Origin: an uncultured Opitutaceae bacterium
GTDB taxonomy: Bacteria; Verrucomicrobiota; Verrucomicrobiia; Opitutales; Opitutaceae
DNA: 64,000 bases
Reading direction: 5' to 3'
Assembly (NCBI GenBank): GCA_903919205.1
Contig: CAIXHE010000109.1
Span: 36,078 to 100,077, forward strand
Below are positions 8,407-58,610 of this stretch, piece by piece. The notes beneath the pieces were generated by a model. The model saw only the letters and a program-made list of their open reading frames with translations. It ran no database searches and was not told the origin of the DNA. Positions within the stretch are counted from its first letter, which is position 1. Every line of letters begins with the position of its first letter. The position numbers and the translations under genes were made by a program.

Positions 8407-8448
8407 AGACTACCGTTTTGAACGGGGCTGCGAGATGGGGTGAAACCC
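8407..8448 (-). promoter_or_regulatory. Shared promoter element, N-ATPase operon
   Basis: Read on the minus strand: GGGTTTCACCCCAT, then 22 nt, then TAGTCT as the -10 box (8412-8407). The predicted transcription start is 8400, giving a 72-nt leader to atpD. A -35 consensus is absent. Confidence 0.65.
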
Positions 8449-8458
8449 GCCCGATCCA

Positions 8459-10804
8459 CTAGGACAGGCGCAGGCGCCGCAGGACCGGGACCTTCGCGAG
8501 GTCGAGGAGGACCGCGAAGGCCGCCGCGCCCGCGAGCATGCATGCGATCCACAGGGGCGGGACAGGCGCCATGGCCACGCCCCAGAGGGCAAGCGCGGAG
8601 GCGATCGCCACGTCCGCGACGCTCGAAGCGACCAGCCAGCCGCTGGGGGGCGAGGTCCACAGCCCGAGTCGCACCCGGTTGCAGTACGTGGTCGCCTGGT
8701 TTCCGAAGACGATGGCGAGGAACGCAAAGGTCCTGAGCGGCTCGATGGCCGGCCCCAGCCGGCCCCGCGCAACCAGGAGCACCGCCAGGCAGTAGCCGAG
8801 CTCGCAGAAGCCCATGAAGGCGCCCGCCAGGGTGAGGCCCCCGACATGCCACGCGTTGGGTTTGGGGGAGGGGCGGACATTGTCCGTGGTGAGCGACATC
8901 CCGAGGAGATCGCCGGTCAGCATGACGATCACCATCAGCATCGGGGTGAGGATGGCGTGCCCGGTCAGCACGAGGCCCGCGGCCAGAAAGAGCACCTGCA
9001 CGATCTTCTTGGTCACCGAGTTGAGCGTGTAGGTGAGGATCCTCTGGAAGGTGATCCGGCCCTCCTTCACCGAGGCGACGATCCCCCCCAGTCCCGGCTT
9101 CGTCAGCACGATGCCGGCCGCCGCCTTGGCCACGTCGGTTGCGGTGGCGACGGCGATGCCCATGTGCGCCTGGCGCAGCGCAGGCGCATCGTTCGCGCCG
9201 TCGCCGCACATGCCCACGGTGTGCCCGCTCCTCTGGAAGGCCTTCACCAGGGCGAATTTCCCCTCGGGAAGCACCCCGGCGTAGACGGAGTATTGCTCGG
9301 GCCGAGCGTCGGGGGGCACCGCCCCGGGCGGGCACGCGGGGCCCTCGAGACCCACCTCGCGGGCCGCGATGAGCGCGGTCTCCGGTGCATCACCCGTGAT
9401 CATGACCGTGCGCACGCCGAGGGTGCCGAGCTCGGCCACGAGGGCGGAGGAGTCCGCGCGGGGCGGGTCGCTCAGGCCGATCACCCCGGCGAGCCTCAGG
9501 TTGCCTGGGGCGCCCGCGGCTACCGCGAGCACGCGCATCCCGCTCGCCTCCATCTGGGCGGCGACCCCGGACGCCTCGGGACAAGCCTGGCATAGGCGCG
9601 AGACCACGTCGAAGGCCCCCTTCACCGCAAGCTCGGCGCCGCCGCCGGGTGAAAGCGTGGCCTGGGACATCTTGGTCGCGGGGTCGAAGTGCGAGAAATG
9701 GAGGAGCGCGGGTAGGCCCGCCGCCGGATGGAGCAGGGCCGCCGAGCGCACCGCGGCGTCCACGGTGTCCTGTCCGCCCTCCGAGCTGGCCAGGGAGGCG
9801 AAGCCGAGCACGTGGGCTTCGTCGAAGCCCTGCATCGGGCGGGTCTGCGTGACGCTGAGCTCGTTGCAGGTCAGGGTTCCGGTCTTGTCCGCGCAGAGCA
9901 CGTCGATGCTCGCCGCCTCGTCAACCGCCGACAGCCGCGTCGGCAGGACGCCGACCCGGCCGAGGTCCCTCGCGCCCACCGCCGCGGCCAGGGTGAAGGT
10001 GGCGGGAAGGGCCACCGGGACCGAGGCCAGGACCGCAGTCAGCACGAGGGTAATGATCTCGCTTGGGGGGCGCCCCAGGTGGTGCGCGTAGAAGGCCAGG
10101 GCCACCGTGATCGCACCGTTGCAGATCGCGAGGTTGCGCACCACGCGGAAGACGGCCTTCTGCTGCGTGCTCTCGACGCTCGCCGTGCGGACGAGCTCCG
10201 CCGATCTCCCGAACTTGCTGCGGCTGCCCGTGGCCGTCACGAGCGCCTCGGCCTCCCCGCGCCTGACGAGCGCCCCGGAGAAGGTGAGGACGCCGGGGCC
10301 GGCGTCGATCGGGATCGACTCGCCGGTCAGCATCGACTGGTCAATCAGGACCTCCCCTCCGGTCAGGGTCACGTCGGCGGGCACGCGCCCCCCGAGGCTC
10401 AGCTTCACCCGGTCGCCCGGCACCACCTGCGCGGCGGGAACCACCCTCCATTTTCCATCCCGGAGCACCGAGGCGCTGAGGGCGAGGCGGGACCTGAGCG
10501 CCACCAGAGTAGCCTGGGCCCTCCCCTCCTGCACGAAGCCGAGGAGCGCGTTGAACGTGAGCAGGGCAAGCAGGATCGACCCCTCGACATACTTGCCCAG
10601 GCAGATCTCCAGCACGAGCGCGGCCTCGAGCAGCCAGGGGACGGGCGCCGAAAACTGCGAGAGGACCCTCCAGAGCACTCCAGGCCGCGTGTCGGGCAGC
10701 GAGTTCGGACCCCACGCCGCGAGTCGGCTCGTTGCCTCGGCGGCCGAAAGGCCCCCGGCCGGCGTGGCCGGGGGAGGTGGCGGCTGCTTGGACTCTGCGG
10801 TCAT
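8459..10804 (-). CDS. P-type cation ATPase, plasma-membrane H+-ATPase-like (PIIIA)
   Basis: This is a 781-residue membrane pump. It carries the actuator TGES (about residue 160), the phosphorylation motif DKTGTLT (Asp about 305) and the hinge motif GDGANDAPAL (about 535). Membrane segment 4 reads PVALPATFTLA, the pattern of P-III proton pumps rather than heavy-metal (CPC) or calcium (PEGL) pumps. No N-terminal metal-binding domain is present. It follows the phosphoketolase gene by 54 nt with no promoter of its own, so the two are probably co-transcribed. Pumping protons out at ATP cost would suit fermentative acid production from acetyl-phosphate, but the ion is inferred. Confidence 0.88.
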   Translation of the reverse strand: MTAESKQPPPPPATPAGGLSAAEATSRLAAWGPNSLPDTRPGVLWRVLSQFSAPVPWLLEAALVLEICLGKYVEGSILLALLTFNALLGFVQEGRAQATLVALRSRLALSASVLRDGKWRVVPAAQVVPGDRVKLSLGGRVPADVTLTGGEVLIDQSMLTGESIPIDAGPGVLTFSGALVRRGEAEALVTATGSRSKFGRSAELVRTASVESTQQKAVFRVVRNLAICNGAITVALAFYAHHLGRPPSEIITLVLTAVLASVPVALPATFTLAAAVGARDLGRVGVLPTRLSAVDEAASIDVLCADKTGTLTCNELSVTQTRPMQGFDEAHVLGFASLASSEGGQDTVDAAVRSAALLHPAAGLPALLHFSHFDPATKMSQATLSPGGGAELAVKGAFDVVSRLCQACPEASGVAAQMEASGMRVLAVAAGAPGNLRLAGVIGLSDPPRADSSALVAELGTLGVRTVMITGDAPETALIAAREVGLEGPACPPGAVPPDARPEQYSVYAGVLPEGKFALVKAFQRSGHTVGMCGDGANDAPALRQAHMGIAVATATDVAKAAAGIVLTKPGLGGIVASVKEGRITFQRILTYTLNSVTKKIVQVLFLAAGLVLTGHAILTPMLMVIVMLTGDLLGMSLTTDNVRPSPKPNAWHVGGLTLAGAFMGFCELGYCLAVLLVARGRLGPAIEPLRTFAFLAIVFGNQATTYCNRVRLGLWTSPPSGWLVASSVADVAIASALALWGVAMAPVPPLWIACMLAGAAAFAVLLDLAKVPVLRRLRLS

Positions 10805-58489: not shown

Positions 58490-58571
58490 GGGGAGAACGG
58501 GGTCGCGCGGCGCGCCCCGTCCGTCGGAGGGCCTCCCGGGCGTCGCGTGGAAATCTCAGTCAAGGGGCCCC

Positions 58572-58610
58572 ATCATGGGGCCGCCGCACGCCGCGACATA
58601 TGGGGTGAAA
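58572..58610 (-). promoter_or_regulatory. Shared promoter element, cyclic-glucan synthase
   Basis: Minus strand: CGTTTCACCCCAT with a degraded left half, 22 nt, CATGAT. Predicted start 58565. The -10 lies inside a 17-nt perfect palindrome (58566-58582, GGCCCCAT-C-ATGGGGCC), a possible extra operator. Confidence 0.55.

What the first reader, a model, noticed from the sequence alone, without database searches (positions are those of the whole stretch)
8407..58610. A phase-locked promoter element, ACCCCAT-N22-TAnnCT, heads nearly every transcription unit in a 50-kb block
By eye I find 20 intergenic copies of an oriented element: a variable GGG(G)T half, a near-invariant ACCCCAT, then TAnnCT or CAnnCT. 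In 16 copies a recognisable -10 (A at position 2, T at position 6) starts exactly 22 nt after the ACCCCAT/ACCCCAG. Two copies fit at 23 nt, and two (acetate kinase, kaiC) lack a good -10. ACCCCAT would sit at about -41 to -35, and no TTGACA-like -35 is present, as at class II activator promoters. The orientation always points to the downstream gene, on both strands. I know of no described motif with this form.
Basis: partly seen in the sequence, partly recalled or inferred. Interest (0 to 1): 0.93.

Follow-up and report, generated by a model that had tools for sequence, protein, structure and literature searches.

The report
Stress-gene promoter switch in Verrucomicrobiota
Many genes in this bacterium, and in its Verrucomicrobiota relatives, carry the same inverted-repeat DNA word at an almost fixed distance from a predicted promoter core; it is likely the landing site of a two-component regulator encoded among them, which would switch on a predicted stress programme together.

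Summary
The window holds 20 ACCCCAT (6.0 expected); 14 of 24 ACCCCAT/ACCCCAG copies have YAnnnT exactly 22 nt on, and no other spacing from 8 to 40 nt has more than 3. In 57 whole genomes GGGTNNNACCCCAT-N22-YANNNT occurs 152 times, against 42 for ten shorter spacings pooled and 1 for the reversed pattern. The assembly is Opitutaceae-like (Verrucomicrobiota; inferred). The element is half of a palindrome: ATGGGGT-N4-ACCCCAT across the class, N3 or N4 here. It heads related predicted stress genes in many genomes and is not confined to this block. Best reader: the NarL-type response regulator at 37035-37712 (RR-A). Twenty RR-A neighbourhoods hold 38 composites, twenty control NarL neighbourhoods 1; RR-A and motif co-occur. 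Against this, nine motif-bearing draft genomes show no close RR-A, and 11 of 54 RR-A genomes show neither pattern. Activation is inferred from position, close to NarL at E. coli ogt (-44.5; PMC7419079). Binding, start sites and signal are untested. A new regulon and operator of a known kind.

The parts
8407..8448 (-). operator (GGGTTTCACCCCAT) + N22 + TAGTCT; heads the alternate F1F0 ATPase operon (1435-8328)
   Evidence: ATPase beta by NCBIfam TIGR03305 above cut-off
13391..13432 (-). operator + N22 + CATCCT; heads phosphoketolase (10859-13336) and, next on the same strand, a cation P-type ATPase (8459-10804)
14662..14704 (-). ACCCCAT before acetate kinase (13451-14629); only CAAGGT at N23, weak
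14733..14774 (+). operator + N22 + CATGCT before a small CbpM/MerR-like gene (14838-15308; name inferred)
15339..15380 (+). ACCCCAT + N22 + TAACCT before a DUF2934-like gene and an ABC exporter run (15388-20295; names inferred)
24123..24164 (+). operator + N22 + CATGCT before a 229-aa gene (24228-24917) that looks like a host-attachment protein (name inferred; no Pfam or NCBIfam hit)
25877..25919 (+). operator (GGGGTTTTACCCCAT) + N22 + TACGCT before a PRC-barrel / YflT / aldolase / phosphorylase run (25984-33520)
36123..36165 (-). ACCCCAT + N22 + TACTCT before the BON-domain gene (35209-35949)
36192..36234 (+). ACCCCAT + N22 + TAAGCT before the ECF sigma gene (called 36218-37000; start uncertain); its cluster is one of the two largest target clusters
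39096..39137 (+). operator (ACCCCAG form) + N22 + TAGGTT before 39247-39879
40561..40602 (-). operator + N22 + TATCCT before 39898-40551
41654..41696 (-). ACCCCAT + N22 + TATCCT before 41162-41584
43476..43522 (+). palindrome with spacer 5, TACCGT at N23, before PPK2 (43625-44488)
45893..45934 (-). operator + N22 + TAGCAT before an SPFH/slipin-like gene (44851-45816; name inferred)
49066..49107 (+). ACCCCAT + N22 + TACGCT before small membrane-protein-like genes 49171-49621
58572..58613 (-). ACCCCAT + N22 + CATGAT before the 2869-aa NdvB-like gene (49877-58486; name inferred)
38957..38971 (-). operator GGGGTTTTACCCCAT before the kinase-regulator operon; no -10 at N22
37728..38894 (-). HK-A: sensor kinase with HisKA_3 + HATPase_c, no recognised sensor domain
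37035..37712 (-). RR-A: NarL-type response regulator (receiver + GerE/LuxR DNA-binding domain), best candidate reader

Best explanation
The element is an inverted-repeat DNA word (ATGGGGT-N3-4-ACCCCAT) whose downstream half lies mostly 22 nt before a -10-like hexamer (TAnnnT), and it is likely the binding site of the NarL-type response regulator encoded in the same block (RR-A, 37035-37712), which would activate these promoters. Shown by calls: the repeat, the phase lock, the upstream and co-directed placement, recurrence before related genes across Verrucomicrobiota genomes, and co-localisation and co-occurrence with RR-A. Inferred: a kinase (HK-A, 37728-38894) phosphorylates RR-A; the RR-A dimer binds centred at about -43 to -44, next to or overlapping a poor -35 region (no TTGACA), and recruits RNA polymerase with the housekeeping sigma. 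The targets look like a survival programme: phosphoketolase-acetate kinase, alternate ATPase, BON, PRC-barrel, CsbD-like, Dps-like, HtpG-like, polyphosphate kinase, and an ECF sigma that would relay the signal further. The signal is unknown.
For: Phase: 14 of 24 window copies at N22; 152 sites at N22 against 42 for ten shorter spacings in 57 genomes. Placement: of 78 sites, 2 inside genes, 63 intergenic less than 300 nt before a co-directed gene, 13 neither; 8 of 8 fetched of the 13 own-genome sites outside the window are intergenic. Recurrent targets (single-linkage clusters): ECF sigma 15 loci, BON 12, PRC-barrel 11, host-attachment-like 8. Reader: 20 RR-A neighbourhoods (357 kb) hold 38 ACCCCAT-N22-YAnnnT in 18 of 20 and 94 strand-wise GGGT-N4-ACCCCA; 20 control NarL neighbourhoods (347 kb) hold 1 and 1. 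Among 80 RR-A loci from named records, 113 near-palindromes against 3-11 for five scrambled words, with local peaks around the kinase-regulator genes. Co-occurrence in 384 genomes: both 45, motif only 23, RR-A only 31, neither 285; with N4 palindromes added, in 256 genomes at >=2 sites 36/12/18/190, at >=1 site 43/31/11/171; all 12 genomes with >=8 palindromes have RR-A. Recognition helix: KTVEKHR in 37 of the 38 RR-A rows where a helix was printed (two rows duplicate; 5 more gave none). NarL activates ogt from -44.5 (PMC7419079, passages); the start-proximal DevR site overlaps the -35 element (PMC3029386, passages).
Against: No binding, expression or start-site data. Draft genomes with >=2 sites and no close RR-A remain: G013, G072, G134, G172, G174, G200, G347, G360, G418 at the strict count (G200), and G145, G207, G272 when palindromes are added. 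Partial or broken RR-A was found in G131, G227, G112 and G138; in the other five RR-A-less genomes fetched (G072, G134, G145, G174, G207) none was found near the sites. 11 of 54 RR-A genomes showed neither pattern. 33 of 80 named RR-A loci had no near-palindrome, five of them about 20 kb long. Co-localisation alone would also be seen if RR-A were only a target, and the control loci left out distant paralogues lying on RR-A contigs. Fisher tests ignore relatedness. The operator at HK-A has no -10 at N22.
Confidence: 0.7

Rival explanations
1. A different regulator, present also in the RR-A-less genomes, reads the motif; RR-A is one of its targets. The orphan NarL regulator RR-B, the closest other DNA-binding domain in five of the nine, could have that role there.
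For: Motif before the same kinds of genes in draft genomes without RR-A; RR-B in G013, G347, G360 (78-100% to the query) and G172, G200 (56%); RR-B shares the KLN-H-...-LTRYA tail of the DNA-binding domain.
Against: RR-B is present (E <= 1e-45) in 33 of 38 sampled genomes of the family, 17 of which have no strict composite, and in further families of the order without motif; its helix differs at likely base-contact positions (KTVDNHRT against KTVEKHRQ; contact positions recalled). Some RR-A absences are broken genes or fragmented bins.
Confidence: 0.2
2. The element is the promoter of the ECF sigma factor (36218-37000), one of its most recurrent targets, by autoregulation.
For: The ECF cluster is one of the two largest downstream clusters (15 loci).
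Against: 22 nt between ACCCCAT and the hexamer is too long for a sigma -35/-10 pair (recalled: 16-19) and the hexamer is TAnnnT; ECF orthologues at E<1e-60 occur in family genomes without a strict composite (G014, G016, G019, G030, G187) and only weak ECF hits occur in motif-rich genomes outside the family.
Confidence: 0.05
3. The palindrome is bound by a CRP/FNR-type, CsoR-type or other one-component regulator.
For: GGGGT-N4-ACCCC spacing resembles FNR (recalled); most CsoR-RcnR homologues bind pseudo-palindromes with runs of at least four G or C (PMC10318464, passages).
Against: The spacer varies between 3 and 4 and the centre lies 1.5-3 bp upstream of -41.5; the CsoR sites quoted there have the C run left and the G run right, the reverse of this one; no such gene was named in the block. 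Not tested class-wide.
Confidence: 0.08
4. Chance or compositional motif in a GC-rich genome.
For: C-rich word; background copies exist (13954, 53025).
Against: Shuffles and reversed controls, scrambled words.
Confidence: 0.01

Closest known systems
NarL-activated ogt promoter of E. coli (PMC7419079, passages read)
   Same: NarL-family regulator; inverted-repeat site abutting the -35 element, centred at -44.5; activation through contact with RNA polymerase alpha
   Different: E. coli site is a 7-2-7 repeat and ogt uses tandem sites; the single -44.5 derivative was active without nitrate too. Here ATGGGGT-N3/4-ACCCCAT, before many genes of one predicted regulon
DevR/DosR dormancy regulon of Mycobacterium (PMC3029386, passages read)
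   Same: NarL-subfamily regulator; start-proximal site overlaps the -35 element; autoregulation; survival-type gene set
   Different: DevR targets have one, two or more sites with cooperative binding; HK-A shows no GAF sensor in Pfam; RR-A's best solved relative is VraR (1.3e-37), DevR is weaker (8.2e-29)
lxa low-oxygen locus and RoxSR of Burkholderia cenocepacia (PMC9104464, passages read)
   Same: Large co-induced locus of metabolism, stress and transport genes (lxa); two-component system needed for anoxic survival (RoxSR)
   Different: The RoxR consensus given there, GCGGCAATTTAGAGC, is unlike this operator; phylum differs
MctS/MctR two-component system (NCBIfam)
   Same: Best NCBIfam names for both HK-A and RR-A
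   Different: Both far below the curated cut-offs (161.7 of 700; 194.4 of 300)

Membership tests
NarL/FixJ-type two-component system | receiver + GerE/LuxR DNA-binding domain in the regulator | tested here: met
   Pfam PF00072 and PF00196 above cut-off
NarL/FixJ-type two-component system | adjacent HisKA_3 kinase | tested here: met
   PF07730 and PF02518 in 37728-38894
NarL/FixJ-type two-component system | regulator binds the operator when phosphorylated | not testable with these tools
   needs EMSA or footprinting
E. coli NarL regulon | 7-2-7 operator | tested here: not met
   GGGT at spacer 3 in 77, spacer 4 in 23, spacer 2 in 0 of 161 composite sites in fetched islands; in RR-A neighbourhoods N4 94, N3 15, N2 1
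DosR/DevR regulon | GAF-domain sensor kinase (DevS/DosT; feature recalled) | tested here: not met
   no GAF domain in HK-A
Class II activator promoter | site next to or overlapping -35, fixed distance to a -10-like hexamer | tested here: met
   N22 lock
Class II activator promoter | transcription start about 7 nt after the -10 | not testable with these tools
   no start-site data
ECF sigma promoter | short (16-19 nt, recalled) -35/-10 spacing | tested here: not met
   22 nt between ACCCCAT and hexamer; TAnnnT hexamer
Burkholderia RoxR sites | consensus GCGGCAATTTAGAGC | tested here: not met
   different word (compare)
CRP/FNR regulon | CRP/FNR-type regulator co-occurring with the motif | not tested

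The most novel reading that the evidence does not exclude
This is the general stress response of a large part of Verrucomicrobiota: instead of a sigma-factor partner switch, a NarL-type two-component regulator reads one hard-wired promoter word and drives both the stress genes and a subordinate ECF sigma factor.
Probability: 0.3. Interest if true: 0.78.

Novelty: new member of a known kind. Interest (0 to 1): 0.6.

Why it matters
Regulators and promoters of this group seem little described: the listings of my searches showed no regulon or operator of this form (open-licence papers, capped lists). A promoter word this strict lets one predict regulon membership straight from uncultured genomes, names a regulator to test, and predicts start sites to within a base or two. 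Similar predicted stress genes sit under it in many genera, so one experiment in one cultured member would inform the annotation of many related genomes.

Tried and rejected
Considered and rejected: Burkholderia RoxR (different consensus); ECF autoregulation; RR-B as general reader; CsoR-type sites (run order reversed); chance (shuffles, reversed and scrambled controls). The 65 of 78 phase figure comes from loci partly chosen by N22 hits and is biased; the unbiased comparison is. A possible weak -35 was only looked at in the logo. Literature listings on the word and on Verrucomicrobiota regulons gave no description; of the listed papers I opened passages of four. Two searches failed on a disallowed sign. 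Unused: structure prediction, fold search, homologous-protein search, viral, phage and plasmid collections.

Dropped rows and choices: in the phase counts the words ACCCCAA/ACCCCAC were not counted; only sites with a hexamer at N21-23 and a gene within 320 nt were kept (222 sites, 202 distinct proteins, some from the same genome held under two locus ids); one search used 78 of the 80 named loci (L261 and L262 start inside RR-A); the control loci passed over distant NarL paralogues lying on a contig with RR-A (for example G066:C44, G059:C1, G237:C109, G075:C65), which favours the contrast.
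Full report
What was checked. The window has 20 ACCCCAT, against 5.97 expected; none of 100 shuffles reaches 20. ACCCCAK followed at 21-24 nt by YANNNT occurs 17 times against 0.54 expected. Among all 24 ACCCCAT/ACCCCAG copies, YAnnnT stands at exactly 22 nt in 14, at 23 nt in 3, and at no other spacing from 8 to 40 nt more than 3 times; the background rate of YAnnnT is about 1.1-1.3% per position. Gene calls made with a small codon-usage script put 18 of the 20 ACCCCAT mostly between genes and 16 of 20 within 300 nt before a co-directed gene; 36200 is a further true case. 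13954, 17667, 42662 and 53025 are background copies.

Own genome. The search placed the window in contig C109 of a 3.26-Mb, 174-contig assembly. ACCCCAT-N22-YANNNT has 26 hits there and 1 in the reversed control; 13 are in the window. Eight of the other 13 were fetched and all 8 are intergenic, before genes that look like DUF2934, HtpG, an NADH dehydrogenase, a metal ATPase, CsbD and others (names inferred from sequence). The 36 kb of the contig before the window hold no ACCCCAT and four ACCCCAG without a hexamer at N22.

Relatives. In 57 genomes (own included) GGGTNNNACCCCAT-N22-YANNNT occurs 152 times in 24 genomes, with 1 reversed control (sum of the table, recounted). The same left part with spacings 12-21 pooled gives 42 rows, about 4 per spacing. 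In 38 fetched loci of 19 relatives (694 kb) 78 GGGTNNNACCCCAT were found: 65 with the hexamer at N22, 8 at N23; 2 inside genes, 63 intergenic before a co-directed gene, 13 neither (the loci were chosen partly by N22 or kinase hits). The aligned sites read GGGTWAC-ACCCCAT-RGC, then TAnnnT, with no TTGACA.

Who the organism is. The nearest named matches of the regulator are Opitutaceae MAGs (86% identity, PLXS01000016.1), followed by other Verrucomicrobiota records, some Kiritimatiellae and Lentisphaerae, and a few records labelled as other phyla (lineage). The window's own record may be left out of that list, so 'Opitutaceae-like' is inference.

The operator. Around the regulator RR-A in 20 genomes across the class, GGGT-N4-ACCCCA occurs 94 times counted on both strands, N3 15 times, N1, N2, N5, N6 at most once each. 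The N4 sites read ATGGGGT-N4-ACCCCAT, and the hexamer stands at N22 in 21 and at N23 in 23 of 94 strand-wise copies. TGGGGTNNNNACCCCA occurs 241 times in 52 of 256 class genomes, reversed control 23 in 18.

The reader protein. The block encodes a HisKA_3 kinase and a NarL-type regulator. Twenty RR-A neighbourhoods hold 38 ACCCCAT-N22-YAnnnT in 18 of 20 loci; twenty neighbourhoods of more distant NarL regulators (40-49% identical, contigs with RR-A passed over) hold 1. In 80 loci from named records, palindromes with up to two mismatches number 113, five scrambled words give 3-11; 47 of 80 loci have at least one; their density peaks upstream of the kinase, directly upstream of RR-A and directly downstream (12 in 72, 9 in 75, 9 in 77 loci). 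Over 384 genomes RR-A (E <= 1e-60) and the N3 composite co-occur: 45 both, 23 motif only, 31 RR-A only, 285 neither. Of those 31, one search covered 21, and 10 of the 21 carry the N4 palindrome (8 at least twice). Over 256 genomes with both patterns and at least 2 sites the table is 36, 12, 18, 190; with at least 1 site 43, 31, 11, 171; all 12 genomes with 8 or more palindromes have RR-A. These tests do not correct for relatedness.

Results against. At the strict count 11 genomes with two or more sites lacked RR-A. G131 and G227 have partial RR-A; nine remain (G013, G072, G134, G172, G174, G200, G347, G360, G418). In several of them the motif stands before similar genes (PRC-barrel, host-attachment-like, BON, acetate kinase, NdvB-like). 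All nine are drafts of 40 to 170 contigs, and in G347 the stress contig ends at the aldolase gene, before the place where RR-A lies in the window, so absence is not proven. In the 256-genome set 12 lacked RR-A; stretches of seven of them were fetched: G112 and G138 hold broken RR-A sequence beside operators, the other five show none. RR-B, an orphan NarL regulator near an ECF gene, is the closest other DNA-binding domain: clear orthologues in G013, G347, G360 and a 56% relative in G172 and G200. But RR-B is in 33 of 38 sampled genomes of the family, 17 of them without a strict composite. The ECF sigma does not follow the motif either. 11 of 54 RR-A genomes had neither pattern. HK-A's own operator has no hexamer at N22, in this genome and in L021 and L137.

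How it would work. With the hexamer taken as -12 to -7, ACCCCAT spans -41 to -35 and the repeat is centred at -43 (N3), -43.5 (N4, N22) or -44.5 (N4, N23). NarL activates the E. coli ogt promoter from a site centred at -44.5 that abuts the -35 element (PMC7419079, passages), and the start-proximal DevR site overlaps the -35 element (PMC3029386, passages). A NarL-type activator recruiting polymerase at promoters with a poor -35 is therefore the simplest mechanism; it is inferred, not shown. Downstream genes recur (single-linkage clusters): ECF sigma 15 loci, single receivers 15 genes in 12 loci, BON 12, PRC-barrel 11, host-attachment-like 8, NdvB-like 5, phosphoketolase 4. With Dps-like (best NCBIfam hit below cut-off), HtpG-like and CsbD-like genes this resembles a general stress or survival set, an inference from gene names.

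Novelty. The listings of nine answered literature searches showed nothing of this form, in open-licence PMC papers only and with capped lists. The kind (a NarL-type regulon with an operator at the -35) is known; this operator, regulon and host group appear new.

Noticed in passing
window 43476-43494 and 46731-46749 (+): Two intergenic copies share the identical 19-mer ATGGGGAGAGGACCCCATG with spacer 5; one has a hexamer at N23, the other none.
   Followed up: no
window 38929-38971 (-), L021, L137: The operator before the kinase gene is conserved without a -10 at N22; in the window and L021 the stretch ATGAGACAGT follows about 20 nt downstream (out of the kinase frame in the window).
   Followed up: partly
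L353, L359: Two relatives that seemed to lack RR-A hold broken copies of it (in-frame stop; short open frame) right beside operators: decay or assembly error.
   Followed up: partly
L281:1489-2136 and homologues: Orphan NarL-type regulator (RR-B) near an ECF sigma gene in several family genomes and widespread in the order.
   Followed up: partly
L336:9180-12355: In one relative the motif heads a kinase plus NtrC-like regulator operon resembling KinB/AlgB (name recalled).
   Followed up: no
window 1435-8328 (-): Alternate F1F0 ATPase operon (beta subunit above the TIGR03305 cut-off) under the element.
   Followed up: partly
window 17667, 13954, 42662, 53025: Background ACCCCAT/G copies at or inside genes, useful as negative controls.
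   Followed up: yes
L363, L364: In two other families a second receiver gene stands beside RR-A on the opposite strand, with operators nearby.
   Followed up: no
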